A DNA stretch of 64,000 nt, taken from positions 1 through 64,000 of the forward strand of contig JADGJT010000013.1 in assembly GCA_027604005.1 (NCBI GenBank), given 5' to 3'. Position 1 is the first letter of the stretch, and each line of letters begins with the position of its first letter. Under the pieces are notes generated by a model. It ran no database searches. It was given only the letters and a program-made list of their open reading frames with translations, and was not told the DNA's origin. Positions 40,388 to 49,235 of this stretch are shown piece by piece. A program made the position numbers and the translations under genes. The DNA comes from Dinochytrium kinnereticum (lineage: Eukaryota > Chytridiomycota > Chytridiomycetes > Chytridiales > Chytridiaceae).

Positions 40388-42226
40388 ATGGTGGGTGATG
40401 CTGCATCCCATGGCATCCGGAGTGATCACCGATATGCTGACCCTTCTGTATGTGCTATCTTGTAGGGGAGCCTTTTTGTTTTGTTTGAGACGGCCGCCGG
40501 CTATGCCCTCTTTGAGCGCATCCAGTCCGAGGAGATTGGCCAGGATCTGGAGGATGTGCAAAAAGCCACCCTGGATCTTACCAAGTTCGGTAGATATGTC
40601 AAGCTTAAGAGTTTTGCGCCATTTAAGAGCGCTGCTCATGCGTTAGAGAACCTTATGGACATTACGGAAGGTGCGGTTTTATCCTCGTTCCCACAACCAT
40701 TTCTCAAGTCTTACAATCGCCTTTGTGGCGTTTTCTATCATCGCAGGAATCGCACATGACCACCTGAAGTCATTCTTAGAAGTTAACATGCCCAAGGGCA
40801 AGAAGAGCAATGCTCAGCTTGGTGTTGGTGAGAAGAATCTGGCTGGACACATTAAAGCGGAGCTTGGCTATAATTGCGTTAGCAGCGACACCAACGACAC
40901 TGTTGCCGAGATAATCAGAGGATTGAGGTTGCACTCGGAGAAGCTCCTGAAGCAGATGAAGGATGGTGACATGTACCGTGCTCAGCTGGGTCTTGGCCAC
41001 TCGTACTCAAGAGCAAAGGTTAAGTTCAACGTCAACAGGGCCGACAACATGATTATTCAGTCGATCAACTTGCTGGATCAGCTTGACAAGGACGTGAACC
41101 TCTTCTCCATGCGTGTCAGGTTTGTGGGAGATGGCATGGATGATAGTTTAACTTTTCATAATTACATTCCGTTTTTAGGGAATGGTACTCGTGGCATTTC
41201 CCTGAGCTCATCAAGGTCGTTGGTGAGAACGCTACCTACGCTCGATGCGTTAAGTACATAAAGAACAAGGGAGAGCTTTCGGAAGATGACCTTCCCGAAC
41301 TTGAGAGCATCCTCAAAGAGGACGCAACTAAAGCGAAATTGATCCTTCAGGCAGCAGCTACCTCTATGGGAACCGATATTTCCGAGATTGATATGCAAAA
41401 TATTGAGGCATTCGCCGATCGTGTTATCTCCCTCACCGACTACCGCAAGCGCCTTCACAGCTACCTCGTGTCGAAGATGCACCAGGTCGCTCCCAACCTT
41501 TCGGCTTTGATCGGCGAGATGGTTGGCGCGCGACTGATTGCCCACGCTGGATCTTTGACCAACTTGTCGAAATATCCCGCGTCAACCGTCCAGATTCTTG
41601 GTGCAGAGAAAGCTCTATTCAGGGCTTTGAAAACTCGCGGCAACACTCCCAAATACGGTCTTATCTATCACTCAACTTTCATCGGAAGGGCAGGCGCTAA
41701 GAACAAGGGCCGCATCTCGCGAATCCTTGCGAACAAATGCTCAATAGCCTCGAGGATTGACTGCTTCTTGGACAAGCCTACCTCCCGCTTCGGTGAGCTC
41801 TTGAGGGAGCAGGTTGAAGAGCGACTTGCCTTCTACGAAGAAAACACGACACCCCGAAAGAACGCTGAAGTAATGAGCCAAGCGATGAAGGAGGTCGCCG
41901 CTCAAATGGATTTAGATGACGAAGAAGGTAATTGATTTTGACAAACAACATATGCTTATTTCTTAGAGTCACCTCGGAAGCGAAAGGGAGCTGCGACTGA
42001 TGACGATGATGAAGAATCGGCCTCACCATCGAAGAAGGCTAAGAAGGAGAAGAAGGAGAAGAAGTCCAGCAAAAAGAAGGCGAAGAAGGAGGAGGAAGAC
42101 GAGGAGGAGGAGGCGGAGGAGATCGAGGAGAAGCCCAAGAAATCAAAGAAGAAGAAGACTGCGGCAGTTGAGGCAGAGGAGGAGCCCGTTAAGGAGAAGA
42201 AGAGCAAGAAGAAGGCGAAAGCGTAA
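40388..42226 (+). CDS. NOP56: NOP56, box C/D snoRNP core protein
   Basis: The frame continues upstream of [14 protein letters not shown] to an acceptor at 40465, and the best donor is directly after an ATG at 40388-40390. The initiator Met is therefore the only codon of exon 1, giving [16 protein letters not shown], which aligns with known NOP56 starts. Further introns lie at about 40671-40746, 41118-41178 and 41928-41966. The order is the NOP5 N-terminal domain, the coiled coil, and the Nop domain with [20 protein letters not shown] and [17 protein letters not shown] Lys/Glu-rich tail of about 95 residues follows. With Nop58, Snu13 and fibrillarin it forms the C/D snoRNP that 2'-O-methylates rRNA in the nucleolus. 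An AATAAA lies 20 nt after the stop. Confidence 0.93.
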
Positions 42227-42288: not shown

Positions 42289-45200
42289 ATGGACGTGTTC
42301 GGCAATGCCGCCACTGCTGCGTACATACGGGGCGCCTTTGCTGGGATTGGCTTCCTCATAATCCTTGAAGTATTTATCATCCTCGTCGCATGCTTTTTCT
42401 TGTTCGACCCCATGCGAAAAACTGTCACTCCGCCCAAGCCAGAATACGCCATCGAAGAAAATGCTTCCGACGCTCTGAAGTTTGAAGCATCAGGGATCCC
42501 AAAACCTGGAGGAACCTTTTTGGGTTCATCATCCCTGAGAGCTACGGATAAGACGAATGAGCACGAAGAGCCATGGCCGGCCAACATAATTGGGTATCTC
42601 AAGGCCTCTTTGACTCCAACCCCGGAAGATACAATGTTACCACCACCTCCCCTGAATGCGAAGAAAAAATTCAACGAAGTCCTAGGAGAGGACGGAAAGC
42701 CTCTTCTTCTTGATCCTGTGGCTATGGGCCCAACTCAAGTTTGTGAGTGGGTCAACGTTGTAGCCCACAGATTCTTTTTGTCACTTCGTGACAGCCAGCT
42801 TTTTAAGGATCGCATGCGGCAAAGAACCACAGAGCGGATGAATATGAAGCTAAAAAACAACTCTTTCGTGGTTGGTTGTCATTACTTCTTTTGTTCATTT
42901 TTAATCCCAATTTCTATCCTTCAGTCTCATGTCAACATCATGGATCTTTCATTAGGTGATCATGCACCGAAAATACATGGAATTAGGTTAATGAAGGGAG
43001 TTACGGATGATCTGGCTGTGGTAAGTTATTTTGTAAGGATTACCAAATCTTGAACCAGAAAGGTAGTTGCTTGAAGTAGATGTTACCTATCTCGGTGGCG
43101 GAAGCATAGCTATTGAAACAACCTTAACTGCAGGACTGAGTATACCGGTTCGAGTTTACATAAGTGGATTTTCCGGGAAGGTTCTTCAATGACAGGAAAA
43201 CTTTGTTGTCTAATTTCTTTGCAGTTGCGCGTTCGAATTCCTTCAGTTTATTGGCCAGATATGCTTGCGGTAGCGTTTGTAGAAGACCCTGGAATATCTT
43301 TCGTGGTGGACTCGCCACTGACATTACGAGAGAATGAACTGGTTCGAGGTGTGGTAAATCGACTTCTTGCAAGCATCTTGCGAAAAGTGTTTGTGGAGAT
43401 GTGGGTTATGCCGTCATGGAGGAATTTCTTCATGCCTTTGATGATCCCCTCCGCCTCGGTATGCATATATTCTCAAAAGCCATCAAAAGTAATTAAGTTA
43501 GGAGGAACTAGCTAGGATGAATGCTGCTAATGGCAAACCGCCTACAACACAGCGAAAACCTCCAAATCTATTAGAGAGAAGTGCAACATTGTGGGAGAGC
43601 CGGTCGCCTTTACTTAGAACCTCTTTGAAACCTACGTTGAGCTTACCACTTCTTGACGTACTTGGTGCAGTCTCGTTTCCGACGAACGAGACAGTCTCTT
43701 CAACAGCAGATTTTTCTGATTTAGAATCGAAGTTGAGCAAGCCTTTTCTAGCGATTGCTGTTGACAAGAGGAAGGAGTCGGAGTTTGCAGTGTTTGCGGA
43801 GCCTTCTGAATACCAGCTCCCGGATAATGCCGAGTTTAGGGGATTCTTGAGCTCATTGATGTGGAAGACTGCTAAAAACAGAGGCGGCGTCTGCGTTCAG
43901 AAAAGCAAGGTGGCCTACGGTGGGAGGAGTGGCGACATTTCTCGTGCTTTTATTTCGATAAATTGTGATGCGGAACGTGTATTTGCGGTAGGTCTCATTT
44001 TTTCGTAGTCAGTTCTGTGCATTTTTTCTGTCGAAAGCATTCAAAAGAGATTCTGAGTCTCTTCAAGGTTCTGTCAAACCCAGAACACTTTCGGCACATT
44101 GAGGATACATATACGGATTCGTTTGTAGTTAAAGGACTAGGTACTTCAGTCTTTTTGCTTTCTGTTATAACAATATTAGATGACACACGCTCAGTTCGAC
44201 ATATGTCCTTTTCCTTGTCGAGGAGCTCAAAAAAAGACCTGAATCTCTTTGAAGTTAAGAAAAAAATCATTAAGGCTGCCGATGGTGGCGAGGGAGAAAC
44301 CAAACCAGTATGTGAAGCTTATATAGTAACGATGCGATCGATTGGAAGTCTAAATGAGACGCTGAGTGCCCTAGATCTAAGTCTAAAGGGACCTGATGAT
44401 GGGATTACGCAAAATACTTCCGGTCTGTCTGAGGATGCAAAAACTGCACAGCCTCACCCCATTTCCCGTGAAAGAGTAGCTACCGAATCTACTTCTAAAC
44501 CCGACGTCAAGAAGGGATCCGACAACGTTGCAGCTGAAGACTTGTTACAAGAAATCCCAGCCTCCGATTCCTCAGTACCGGAAAAGCCGCCTAATGAGGC
44601 AGACTCTGCACGATTCTCCACGGTGTATTTATATGGCTATCTGATTGAGGCTTGCCCCGAGGATTCCTCTTCGACTATCGTTACGGTTATCTCACAAATG
44701 GCGCCAGAGTTATCTAAGTTAGAAGCAAACTTCAACGCCTGTCGCAAGATAAAGCTCTTCATTGAAGAGCTTGTGAGTCTCACCTATGGAGGAGCCGCCA
44801 ATCAATCTGGGAATGAACTACGCCGTCGCAGGATATTTAGTAGCGGTACAGGTCTCTCAGCAACGTCCACGGAGTCCACAGGAGAGAAGCGCATCGAGAA
44901 GATCCGCAACCTCGTTAGTTCGACAACAAGTTATTTAATGAAAAGTAAACGTGTCGCTAATTGGCTTGGAAGTGGTACACTGAATGGAAATGAAAGAAAC
45001 CCGGAAACGAGCTCTATCGCAGATGCGCAGAGTATAAATACTGCCGAAATTGAAGAGTTTGCCGAGACGCTAGCACAGGTTGAAATGGCACGGTTGGATG
45101 AGCTGGAGGCTGCCGAAGCAAACTTAGGCGGCGAGCTTGATAACCACGATGAAGGTTTCGAAGCTCATTCGAATGCACCAATTCAACGAAGTTTGGCATT

Positions 45201-46959
45201 CGATAGATTGGACATAGCTGATGATACGCTTTCTACGCAATCGATAGATCTGGACGAAGGAAGACAGTCTTCAGTCGGCCTGCATGCGCCTCCAATACCC
45301 TCAATTCATCCATCCCCTTCCATCATATCGGGAATTAGTGGTATGGTTCCTTCCACATTGAAGGCCTCTGCGGCTTCTGCGGTGGCTATAGCTCGATCTG
45401 TAGCCAAGAGGAGATCTTTTAAGTTTTTGAAAAGAGGCAATCAGACAGGGGAGACTAGTTTAACGGCATCCGATGATGACGAGGCAAATGCACAGCATGA
45501 CAACGGAGCCGAGATTAACGGTATGGACGTGTCATTCGCAGTCGGCACAAACTTGGGGGACGTTCCGTGGGTCGAGAAGAGGATGTTTGGAAAGGGTGAA
45601 ATAGTTAGGGCTGATATGCCCACGTTGGGTTCTGGTGAGAGATTAGAGCTAGCATGGGAATTCTTTGTGAAAGGAGAGGCCACTATAGTTTTCGGGCTGC
45701 TCTTTACCCCTAGTAGCCCCACATCGTTACCCTTTCCGGAAAGCTCGAACGAGCCAGGGACACGACAGATCATCCCCATGGCTAGCGTGAACGGGGCTTC
45801 TCCTCGCGGTTTTCGAGGCTCTTTGAGCACCAGCTCTTTCCCAGAAGGGCTATTTACGTTTGTGTGGGACAATAGCAATGGAAATAAGAAGCAGTTTAAA
45901 GACATTCTTCACCGATTCACATTGCGAGCATTTGAGATTCCAAAGTCTCCTAGCCTATCTTCATCTGCGATTATGCGGGAGCATGTTGGGGAGTTTGGAT
46001 TGGGAACGGATACCCGTGGTTTCTGTACCGGAGTTTCTGGAGAAGTTATTATTCAGCGGAAGGCCGTTTACAGAGTTAGCGTAGTCTATGACTCATCGAT
46101 GGATCCCGCGGAGAGTGAAGACGGGTGTTCCGGAATAACATATTTGACATGGGATTATAGTACTAATGGGCTTGACGTGAATTTCGGTATCAATTACTCC
46201 TGCTTTGTTGATTCAGTGGTCGAAGTAAAGTCGATAGCAGACCAAAGGAGCCATTCCGCTAGTATTGAAGCCCTAAATGCCTCGGAGGGGATTGTGAGAG
46301 ACAGTGCTTCTGAAATTGCAGCAACTTCGGACATGGTTGCATTATTATCGAGTCCATCAATTTCCTGCACACCACCCTTGCCTCAAGTACCGATCTCTGC
46401 AATGGGGTCTTCTCCTCCTAAGTCGGAACGACCCTCTGTGCCGCCACCGAAACCAACGCGACGAGGTCAGAAGTCTCCAAGAGGTGGTAGCCCGCAATCG
46501 GAACGCGGATCTTTAGCGTCACGTTTGGCAGCTACCGTTGCTGCTCATGAGCAGACACCGGCTGCATCTTTAGTATCCGATGATTTTGCGAATACGGATC
46601 TTTCTGGGAGTCTGGATGTGCTGGGAAGTGCAACGCAGATGTCAACCTCACCGGGTATTGAAAGGACTCATTCACAGACCATGGGTTCCATTGGAGGCCT
46701 TTCTGAATCCCTTCGCAAACATAGCCGAGCAGAAGTTATCATTCCATCCGCGAGAGTTAGTTCGCATCGAGGCTCTTCACTGAGTGGTGTCATCCCTATC
46801 TCTGGGCGTCACGGTGTGTACAGTTTTGTATGGGATAATTCACATTCGGTGGTCCTTCATAAAACGATCGCGTTTCGGGTGGGAACGGTGACCCATCCTG
46901 AGCTTTCTCTTGGTGCAGAGGTGGCGGCAGAAGTCTCTCCCCAGAATTCTTTAGAATAA
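42289..46959 (+). CDS. Membrane-anchored SMP-START-GOLD lipid-transfer fusion protein
   Basis: Six exons, 42289..42870, 42925..43020, 43067..43180, 43225..43458, 43502..43987 and 44068..46959, are all multiples of three and give 1,467 residues. Residues 13-38 form one membrane anchor. An SMP domain covers about 151-342: CEWVNVVAHRF, VNIMDLSLGDHAPKI, EVDVTYLGGGSIAIETTL, LRVRIPSVYWPDML. A START-like domain covers about 460-740: AERVFAVLSNPEHFRHIED at the intron 5 junction and a last helix CRKIKLFIEEL. After a disordered region come two GOLD-like sandwiches: about 1014-1124 (RLELAWEFFVKGEATIVFGL ... FTFVWDNSNG) and about 1156-1445 with a long insert (YLTWDYSTNGLDVNFGINY ... YSFVWDNSHS). SMP domains move lipids at ER contact sites. 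Both lipid-binding folds in one chain is unusual. The SMP part resembles TEX2/Nvj2; no PH domain was seen. Confidence 0.78.
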
Positions 46960-47024: not shown

Positions 47025-49235
47025 ATGACCAACCAAGACGGGGATGAGACTTCAACAGTCGACATGGCGCTCATTCAGGGTTTGTTTGCTTTACCTTCCA
47101 TATTTCTCATATTCTCTTTCTTTTCGCCTTTTCACTCTGTGTTGATACTGTGAGAAGGCGTGAATGAGGATGAAACCCCTGACGATGGCCACTCCTCACC
47201 TCAAGGTTTGTAACTTAGTTAAAACCGCTGTGTGCATCTGTCTGATGATATCTGGTTTCCTTTGATCCATGAAGTCTTTAAAAGTGACATACCTCGCACA
47301 GTAGGTTTCTTTTTTCTGCCAAATCTTAACGACCGTAGATTATCGAAGGGCTCTCATTAGAGTAGGTTTAATCAACTACTTCCTTTAAACTGGAAAAAGG
47401 TCTGACGCGGACGAAATATTGGAGGTCTTTGGAAACTGGCAGCATAAATGCTCGACCATCAAAAGCTATCTCATCGATAGGAAAGAAGCGTTCAAAATCG
47501 ATGACGACATGATCGAGAGAATATTATCATTATGGGCAGATGAGCAGTCAGGATGGGAAGATTACATATCCGGGGATGGGTGGAGGAGCACCGCGGATCC
47601 ATATGTTCGCGATAATATCCGGGACACATTGAAGGACTTCCCGGATTTGAAGGATGATTATCGCCTGCTAGATCGAATTGGCCAAGGTAACTGATTGAGA
47701 TCAAGTGACGTATGAACAATTATATGATATGTAAGGCACCTTTAGCTACGTTTACAAAGCCGTCGATATCCACCATGAGAAGTTTGAGAACACGTGGTGC
47801 AAATGCTCAAACCAGGATTCGGCTGCAGGGGCAACTGTCTGTGGTCTAGTCGCCATTAAGATTCTATTCCGAAATGCTGCAGCTGATCGAATCTATCACG
47901 AGATACATGCATTAAATAGTGTAAGGTGAGAGGTCTCTCCCAGTAATGAATCTAAAAAAAAAAAAAGTGGGAAGCCAAATGTTGCTCCCCTCTTGAAAGT
48001 TCATCGTCATAAAGGACAGGTATCACACATATTCTATTTGTAAAAAAGCTTGTAACCGTTATTAGATTGCTTTAGTGTAAACTCTTTTGCCATTACAGAT
48101 ATGCTGACTTTTCCAGAATGCCATATTATGAAACGTTTCGCTTAGAGGTTGCGGCTATCTACTTTTTTCCCTCTAAACCCAATTATATAGAGTAACTTGG
48201 ACGATGAGACAATAAGCATGGATGATATCAGGAGCTATCTGCGAAGCCTATTCTCTTCATTAAAATCAATTCATGAGGCAGGTATAATCCACCGAGATGT
48301 TAAACCTGCGAATTTTGTGTGGAATCGGTCTCAAAATACGGGTGTGTTGATAGATTTTGGGCTCGCGGAAGTGAGTGCTTTAAGCACCTTAATGGAGACT
48401 TACTCAAAGTAGAAACCAAAAGATCTCGGAAAACAAGGTGCTTTGTTCCTTGTTCGGTCGATAACAGATTGACTGGCTATTTTCAGGCAGTTACGGACTT
48501 GTCCAGGGTGGTTCAAGTCTTATTCCGATCTCACATAAAAGTTTGACGGGGAAGCTTAGCCAGAAATCTCTGATGCTGAAGAGCGAAGTTGCCATTGGTG
48601 ACGCTGATACACTCAAAAAAGACGGCACAAAGGTCAAGCTAGGCTACTTGAAAAATGACAAAAGGTTGGCAAAGTCGGAACGAAGGAAAGGTCTCATCAT
48701 TTGTAATTGTTTAGACGTGCTGTAAAAGCGAACAGAAATGGGACTCGTGGATTTCGTGCACCCGAAGTTCTTCTCAAAGTCCCGAATCAAACAACTGGTT
48801 TTTCTATCTTTTCATTGATGAAGATTCACCTTATTTAGCCATTGATATTTGGGCAGCTGGCGTTATCCTTCTCTCATTCCTCACGCGACGATACCCATTT
48901 TTTAATTCGCAGGATGATGCCCATGCGTTATTGGAGATTTCGCATATATTTGGACGACACGCCATGAAGGAAGCTGCAGCTAGGATGGGTCTGCGATCTT
49001 TTCTCGATATACCTTTCTGACATAAAAAAAAGGACGTTCCTTTCACACGAATTTGCCGACTGTTGCAGATGCCCTGTCCTTCGAAACTATCACAAGCACG
49101 TTGGGAGGAATGGACGATATACCTGAATCCGCATTTGATCTGCTACGAAAGTGTATGGATCTTAATCCTCAAACCAGGATAACTGCAAACGAGGCCCTCG
49201 AACATGACTTTTTCAAGGAAGAAAAGAATCAATGA
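47025..49235 (+). CDS. CDC7: CDC7 (Hsk1), DDK catalytic subunit
   Basis: A many-exon gene with a short N-terminus built of small exons from ATG 47025, then DYRLLDRIGQG joined to TFSYVYKAVD across an intron (Gly loop). Next come VAIKILFRN (catalytic Lys), YHEIHALNSV, SIHEAGIIHRDVKPANFVW (HRD), VLIDFGLAEV (DFG), a variable insert at about 48400-48720, and NGTRGFRAPEVLLKVP with IDIWAAGVILLSFLTRRYPFF. The C-lobe ends CMDLNPQTRITANEALEHDFF. CDC7 with its Dbf4 partner phosphorylates MCM2-7 to fire replication origins. The kinase insert between DFG and APE is characteristic of the family. It starts only 65 nt after the stop of the preceding gene. Small N-terminal exons are provisional. Confidence 0.85.

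What the first reader, a model, noticed from the sequence alone, without database searches (positions are those of the whole stretch)
42289..46959. SMP, START-like and two GOLD-like domains on one membrane-anchored protein
Six exons, each a multiple of three with good splice signals, join a membrane anchor, an SMP lipid-transfer domain, a START-like lipid-binding domain and two GOLD-like beta-sandwiches into 1,467 residues. The SMP/START joint lies inside exons 4 and 5, and the start of START crosses intron 5 in frame (ERVFA to VLSNP). I know SMP proteins with C2, PH or CLCC-type partners and START proteins with PH, GOLD-less or GRAM partners, but not this order. Two different lipid cavities in one chain anchored to the ER would suggest a relay or dual-cargo carrier at a membrane contact, with GOLD domains as possible adaptor or secretory-path binding units. 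That function is inference.
Basis: partly seen in the sequence, partly recalled or inferred. Interest (0 to 1): 0.85.

Follow-up and report, generated by a model that had tools for sequence, protein, structure and literature searches.

The report
Chytrid SMP–START–GOLD lipid-transfer protein
A chytrid fungus gene joins a membrane anchor, two different kinds of lipid-carrying domain and two protein-binding domains in one chain, an arrangement shared by its known chytrid relatives but filed in databases under the name of an animal protein that it does not match well.

Summary
The observation largely holds. Window 42289-46959 (+) encodes TM anchor, SMP, START-like domain and two GOLD domains in one protein of Dinochytrium kinnereticum (99-100% to NCBI's P0001). 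Of 27 homologs (25 named, all chytrids), SMP and both START halves are detected in 27, all seven tested blocks in 20, or 16 with near-identical rows also left out; gene-model fusion is unlikely. Family profiles match SMP to Mmm1 and GOLD2 to ACBD3. START shows only by profile-profile comparison, but over its whole length and above 100 of 100 shuffles. GOLD1 rests on homology to GOLD2. The NCBI name 'PDZ domain-containing protein 8' fits poorly (no PDZ, C1 or C2 in 27 of 27). It is probably the unnamed SMP paralog 'specific to flagellated fungi' of Wideman 2018; I found no description of START or GOLD in it. Best guess: an ER-anchored dual lipid-transfer tether; function is inference.

The parts
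42289..46959 (+). Whole gene, 7 exons, 1,454 residues: 42289-42870, 42925-43020, 43067-43180, 43225-43458, 43502-43987, 44068-44140, 44180-46959
   Evidence: In-frame translation with one terminal stop; 100% over 305 aa and 99% over 1,066 aa to P0001; GT-AG at all six introns
42346..42402 (+). N-terminal transmembrane anchor, residues 20-38
   Evidence: Strongest hydrophobic 19-mer of the protein, mean KD 3.04, next 1.55; in 17 of 22 homologs scanned the strongest 19-mer also starts within the first 50 residues, and three of the other five lack the N-terminus
42721..43510 (+). SMP domain, residues 145-345 (exons 1-5)
   Evidence: Profile A5 (11 rows) hits Mmm1 5yk6 E 2.6e-4 and Mdm12 only at E 0.16 or worse; MMM1 over its cut-off in P0019, P0021, P0023; the window protein alone only E 0.0024 to SMP_MUG190-like, under cut-off
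43859..44784 (+). START-like domain, residues 462-730 (a conserved stretch at 410-430 before it may be START helix 1), with a poorly conserved, probably disordered loop 590-672 (44362-44610)
   Evidence: hhalign of 23 rows to 21 START rows: 165 columns over the whole domain, prob 73, P 3e-5, 0 of 100 shuffles reach it; no reliable direct hit in Pfam or PDB
44141..44179 (+).
   Evidence: Nothing inserted there in 20 of 22 aligned homologs, P0001 included; same position and phase as an intron in the C98 paralog
44884..44964 (+). Conserved S/T-rich basic amphipathic segment, residues 764-790 (EKRIEKIRNLVSSTTSYLMKSKRVANW)
   Evidence: Highest hydrophobic moment among the proline-filtered 18-mers of the protein; block found in 23 of 27 homologs, 21 with near twins left out
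45562..45936 (+). GOLD domain 1, residues 990-1114
   Evidence: hhalign to GOLD2 prob 97.7, score 73.4; best of 60 shuffles 20.0; no convincing direct Pfam or PDB hit
46015..46206 (+). GOLD domain 2, first half, residues 1141-1204
   Evidence: Profile A1 to ACBD3 GOLD 6q68, E 7.2e-9 for the chain, this half and the second half aligned in order
46207..46713 (+). Variable insert inside GOLD2 (residues 1205-1373) with a PPPKPTRRG stretch and a conserved SLASRLAA segment
   Evidence: Low conservation apart from residues 1281-1320
46714..46893 (+). GOLD domain 2, second half, residues 1374-1433
   Evidence: Pfam GOLD_2 E 7.8e-7, over cut-off; ACBD3 and SEC14L2/3 GOLD chains

Best explanation
This is a chytrid SMP-family contact-site protein. 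Shown here: one chain carries an N-terminal TM anchor, an SMP domain, a START-like domain, a conserved amphipathic segment and two GOLD domains. Inferred: the TM segment sits in the ER with the rest in the cytosol, as in Mmm1, Nvj2 and PDZD8; the SMP domain moves glycerophospholipids with little head-group choice; the START-like domain picks up a more specific lipid; the amphipathic segment and the ACBD3-type GOLD domains bind the facing membrane or a protein on it, so that both lipid modules can swing across the gap on long flexible linkers. Because Mmm1-like, Mdm12-like and Nvj2-like genes are present in the same genome, it is probably not a stand-in for the ER-mitochondria complex, and a Golgi or endosome partner is my first guess.
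For: Architecture: in 27 homologs, HMMs built without the tested row find SMP and both START halves in 27, GOLD1 in 25, GOLD2a in 23, GOLD2b in 24, all seven blocks in 20, in order wherever found; with near-identical rows also left out 27, 27, 27, 23, 23, 24 and 16. SMP. START-like. GOLD. TM. Amphipathic segment. Mmm1-like gene on C119, best exon E 1.1e-15; Nvj2-like TM+PH+SMP on C141; Mdm12-like on C189 (by its MMM1 match and my reading, no family hit for the open frame given). GOLD beside lipid-binding domains may act as an adaptor, and ACBD3's GOLD can recruit proteins to the Golgi (PMC7057175, passages). SMP holds lipid tails and leaves head groups outside, START encloses the head group (PMC6071762, passages).
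Against: No localisation, lipid-binding or transfer data exist here. The START-like domain lacks the RD pair and the GG-x-IP-x-WL stretch of most bacterial START rows (my reading) and carries a long loop, so it may not bind lipid. With 13 rows only, its profile matched START (32.0) hardly better than Polyketide_cyc2 (30.3) in local score. P0024 has SMP and START but no GOLD detected in 1,247 residues, so GOLD is not needed everywhere. ER placement is by analogy only. No fold was predicted.
Confidence: 0.5

Rival explanations
1. It is an ordinary PDZD8 ortholog, as the NCBI name says, that lost its PDZ end; it works at ER-mitochondria or ER-endosome contacts as PDZD8 does.
For: 6 of 27 homologs are named PDZ domain-containing protein 8, and 25 of 27 carry the precomputed Pfam label PF26547 (my recollection that this is a PDZD8 N-terminal family comes from no call, and one search shows that the library here lacks it). 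Wideman et al. [quoted passage not shown]
Against: No PDZ, C1 or C2 family in 27 of 27 homologs. Wideman et al. recover PDZD8 and a flagellated-fungus paralog as separate strongly supported groups. START and GOLD are not PDZD8 parts.
Confidence: 0.2
2. The START-like domain is a degenerate scaffold or tether that binds no lipid; only SMP moves lipid.
For: START is found only by profile-profile comparison (negative; positive), with motif losses and a long loop.
Against: Both START halves are detected in 27 of 27 homologs (P0014 and P0022 only in part), with well-conserved elements in both halves.
Confidence: 0.25
3. Two neighbouring genes, an SMP gene and a START-GOLD gene, were joined by the gene model.
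For: No transcripts were seen; NCBI's model skips part of the joint.
Against: The order is kept in 27 of 27 homologs, alignment runs through the joint, and intron positions 5 and 6 are shared with the paralog.
Confidence: 0.03

Closest known systems
PDZD8 (animals and close relatives)
   Same: N-terminal anchor followed by SMP, long C-terminal extension; name given by NCBI to 6 of 27 homologs
   Different: No PDZ, C1 or C2 family found in 27 of 27; has START-like and GOLD domains instead
Unnamed SMP paralog 'specific to flagellated fungi' (Wideman et al. 2018, PMC6069729)
   Same: SMP family in flagellated fungi; the 25 named homologs here are chytrids
   Different: The paper's text names no member and mentions no START or GOLD; its sequences and the Figure 2 drawing could not be opened here, so identity is likely, not shown
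Mmm1 / Nvj2
   Same: N-terminal anchor plus SMP
   Different: Mmm1-like and Nvj2-like genes are separate in this genome; Nvj2 has PH before SMP; neither has START or GOLD (recalled)
ACBD3 and SEC14-like GOLD proteins
   Same: GOLD at the C-terminus behind a lipid-binding domain; GOLD2 matches ACBD3 GOLD
   Different: Other lipid-binding domains (ACB, SEC14), one GOLD, no TM anchor or SMP (domain make-up of ACBD3, the rest recalled)
Lam/GRAMD1 and STARD3 (recalled)
   Same: Membrane-anchored START-type domains at contact sites
   Different: No SMP, no GOLD

Membership tests
SMP (TULIP) contact-site proteins | SMP domain | tested here: met
   A5 profile to Mmm1 5yk6 E 2.6e-4; MMM1 over cut-off in P0019, P0021, P0023
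SMP (TULIP) contact-site proteins | Membrane anchor or partner that places it at a contact | tested here: inconclusive
   TM segment present; location not testable
PDZD8 | PDZ and C1 domains after SMP | tested here: not met
   None in 27 of 27 homologs; but some PDZD8 predictions lack PDZ too (PMC6069729)
PDZD8 | Falls in the PDZD8 clade of an SMP tree | not tested
   No animal rows were obtained in the three protein searches
Flagellated-fungus SMP paralog of Wideman 2018 | Groups with that clade | not testable with these tools
   Its sequences are in an outside repository; taxon range agrees
START (PF01852) | Whole-domain sequence relation to START | tested here: met
   165 columns, P 3e-5, 0 of 100 shuffles; to Polyketide_cyc2 38 columns, score 31.0 (best of 60 shuffles 17.1), to Polyketide_cyc none; no direct HMM hit
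START (PF01852) | Helix-grip fold with lipid cavity | not testable with these tools
GOLD | GOLD beta-sandwich sequence signature | tested here: met
   GOLD_2 over cut-off, ACBD3 GOLD; GOLD1 only through its relation to GOLD2

The most novel reading that the evidence does not exclude
A single chain couples a TULIP-type SMP conduit to a StARkin-type START carrier as a counter-exchange machine: SMP passes bulk phospholipid one way while START returns or delivers a chosen lipid, with the GOLD pair setting which organelle is served. It would be an old chytrid solution to a task that other eukaryotes split between separate proteins.
Probability: 0.2. Interest if true: 0.8.

Novelty: new variant of a known kind. 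Interest (0 to 1): 0.55.

Why it matters
SMP and START are two unrelated ways to carry lipids between membranes. One protein that holds both, kept in the chytrids seen here, would let one ask directly whether bulk and selective lipid transfer are physically coupled at a contact site. It also corrects a misleading database name (PDZD8) and gives a likely domain content to a paralog group noted in 2018 without a name.

Tried and rejected
Direct evidence for START failed: Pfam on the window protein, PDB by single sequence (no hit to any domain), PDB by START profile (two chance hits), Pfam on 13 START pieces (Polyketide_cyc2 in 3 of 13, best E 0.099, and DUF2505 in 1 of 13, E 0.026; the rest look like chance). 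GOLD1 failed directly too: one search gave six cytokine-receptor chains (best 4qqv, E 1.8e-4, its best stretch 0.016), which I take as a chance match between beta-sandwiches; one search gave GOLD_2 E 0.22 in 1 of 11. NCBIfam gave nothing of use. A second protein search with alignment A1 and a third from the SMP part of P0008 were meant to reach animals and other fungi and returned named chytrids plus one unnamed row each new or old (P0018, P0024). These searches take only candidates of 0.55 to 1.75 times the query length that share exact words, so absence from other groups is not shown. Searches of the genome for SMP_MUG190-like, SMP_LBD and GOLD_2 found nothing, but the tool warns that this does not show absence, and GOLD_2 missed the window gene itself; START missed it too, as it is split by introns. 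Gene fusion by model was considered and rejected. No outgroup was found, so the tree is rooted at the midpoint only.

Rows left out: in A3 two of 15 printed rows (P0011, P0018); in A4 one of 12 (P0009); five of 28 (P0001, same gene; P0010 and P0011, insert; P0014 and P0022, gaps); in the tree P0001 (same gene as the window's); of bacterial START loci the duplicates L028-L031 and the fragment L048; of 25 Polyketide_cyc2 loci two did not join the set. The START yardstick is bacterial only.
Full report
The window belongs to a chytrid genome of 22.4 Mb in 558 contigs. The gene at 42289-46959 is that of Dinochytrium kinnereticum or something indistinguishable from it: the NCBI protein P0001 of that species matches at 100% over 305 residues and 99% over 1,066, and the species' second protein P0009 comes from a contig of 65,402 bases, the length of contig C98 here, where it matches. 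The species is in Chytridiales.

Gene model. They are coded by 39 nt, 44141-44179, with GT-AG ends and a length divisible by three, which is why they read as coding. Removing them leaves 1,454 residues, seven exons and six introns. The paralog on C98 has introns at the same two places: ERIYA|ILSNPDH in phase 0, matching window intron 5, and after the first base of the codon for the G in IAPIGKYAS, matching intron 6. The two Geranomyces models P0010 and P0011 carry 12-residue inserts there, unlike each other, as expected if an intron was left in. The same SMP end is missing from NCBI's P0009, though the DNA of C98 encodes it (KVFLEMWVLPSWRSYFLPMMIPSPQ).

Domains. A hydrophobic 19-mer at residues 20-38 (mean 3.04; next best 1.55) is the only strong one. 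SMP, residues 145-345, is weak by single sequence (SMP_MUG190-like E 0.0024, under cut-off), but an 11-row profile finds Mmm1 5yk6 at E 2.6e-4, with Mdm12 chains at E 0.16 and worse, and MMM1 passes its cut-off in P0019, P0021 and P0023. GOLD2 is clear: GOLD_2 at E 7.8e-7, over cut-off, and the family profile finds ACBD3 GOLD chains at E 7e-9 with both halves in order and SEC14L3 and SEC14L2 at 2e-4 and 1e-3. The halves are parted by a variable insert of about 170 residues. GOLD1 has no convincing direct hit, but is plainly related to GOLD2: hhalign probability 97.7, score 73.4, against a best of 20.0 in 60 column shuffles.

START was the weakest claim and was tested hardest. Pfam and PDB gave nothing reliable. 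I therefore gathered a START set of 21 rows from PDB chain 3qsz and bacterial loci that match PF01852 and compared profiles. With 13 chytrid rows the score was 32.4 against a best of 24.4 in 100 shuffles, over the first 71 columns. With 23 rows the local alignment spans the whole domain, 165 columns from the opening tryptophan to the last helix: probability 73, P 3e-5, score 37.4, best of 100 shuffles 22.2; in global mode 32.8 against 9.2. SMP, GOLD1 and GOLD2 profiles gave 19.4, 13.2 and 18.5 locally. Against other families of the superfamily the match is partial (Polyketide_cyc2, 38 columns, score 31.0, best of 60 shuffles 17.1) or absent (Polyketide_cyc, 13.7), while bacterial START itself reaches both at 75.6 and 60.4. 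With 13 rows START and Polyketide_cyc2 were nearly level in local score (32.0 and 30.3), so the preference for START rests on the fuller set and on the whole-length alignment. The domain is START-like by ancestry; its fold and cavity are not shown.

Family. Three protein searches returned 27 different proteins; the 25 with a named source are chytrids by name, from Chytridiales, Spizellomycetales, Rhizophydiales, Polychytriales and Synchytriales (orders mostly from my own knowledge of the names; searches checked two species). HMMs built without the tested protein found SMP in 27 of 27, the two START halves in 27 and 27, the amphipathic block in 23, GOLD1 in 25, GOLD2a in 23, GOLD2b in 24 and all seven in 20, in order wherever found. 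With near-identical rows also left out the counts are 27, 27, 27, 21, 23, 23, 24 and 16. Several models are cut: SMP is only part in P0017, P0018, P0020 and P0022, START N in P0014. P0024 has no GOLD detected in 1,247 residues. The tree of 27 rows follows the chytrid groups as I know them, and a second copy (P0009 with Chytridium lagenaria and Phlyctochytrium planicorne) branches within the Chytridiales part (midpoint root). The same genome holds an Mmm1-like gene (C119), a TM+PH+SMP gene like Nvj2 (C141) and an Mdm12-like gene (C189).

What it is called. NCBI names 6 of 27 members PDZ domain-containing protein 8, and 25 of 27 carry PF26547. No PDZ, C1 or C2 family was found in 27 of 27, so the PDZD8 parts after SMP are not met. 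Wideman et al. 2018 (PMC6069729, whole held text read) report an unnamed SMP paralog 'specific to flagellated fungi', strongly supported and apart from PDZD8; they also note that some predicted PDZD8 proteins lack PDZ. The family here fits their paralog in range, but I could not open their sequences. Their text mentions no START or GOLD. Ten paper searches (listings, with passages of six further papers) showed no description of the combination; the library covers open-licence PMC only.

How it may work. SMP domains leave lipid head groups outside and are little selective, whereas START encloses the head group (PMC6071762, passages). GOLD proteins with N-terminal lipid-binding domains may be adaptors between protein and lipid, and the ACBD3 GOLD domain can recruit partners to the Golgi (PMC7057175, passages). 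The segment EKRIEKIRNLVSSTTSYLMKSKRVANW has the highest hydrophobic moment of the proline-filtered windows and is found in 23 of 27 homologs, 21 on the stricter count, which suggests a membrane-touching helix. Put together, the best guess is an ER-anchored tether with a bulk and a selective lipid module, addressed by GOLD and the helix. Anchor, domains and order are shown; ER, partner organelle, cargo and coupling are inferred.

Noticed in passing
window 40647-42226 +: NOP56/NOP58-type gene just upstream: snoRNA-binding Nop domain E 6.6e-83, followed by a lysine/glutamate-rich tail.
   Followed up: partly
window about 47070-48725 +: Protein kinase gene just downstream, split by introns (Pkinase E 4.2e-13 on one open frame; extent by eye).
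   Followed up: partly
L049 (contig C98:52200-57900): Second SMP-START-GOLD gene of the same genome; NCBI's model P0009 drops the exon end with WVLPSWRSYFLPMM, the same kind of error as in P0001.
   Followed up: yes
P0024 (unnamed source): SMP-START protein of 1,247 residues with no GOLD domain detected; SMP plus START may be the core of the family.
   Followed up: partly
P0025 (Kappamyces): The deposited model has peroxiredoxin domains fused ahead of the SMP-START part, probably a neighbour joined by the gene model.
   Followed up: no
L001, L002 (contigs C210, C484): Two other places in this genome match START (PF01852) directly (E 4.7e-7 and 3.1e-4).
   Followed up: partly
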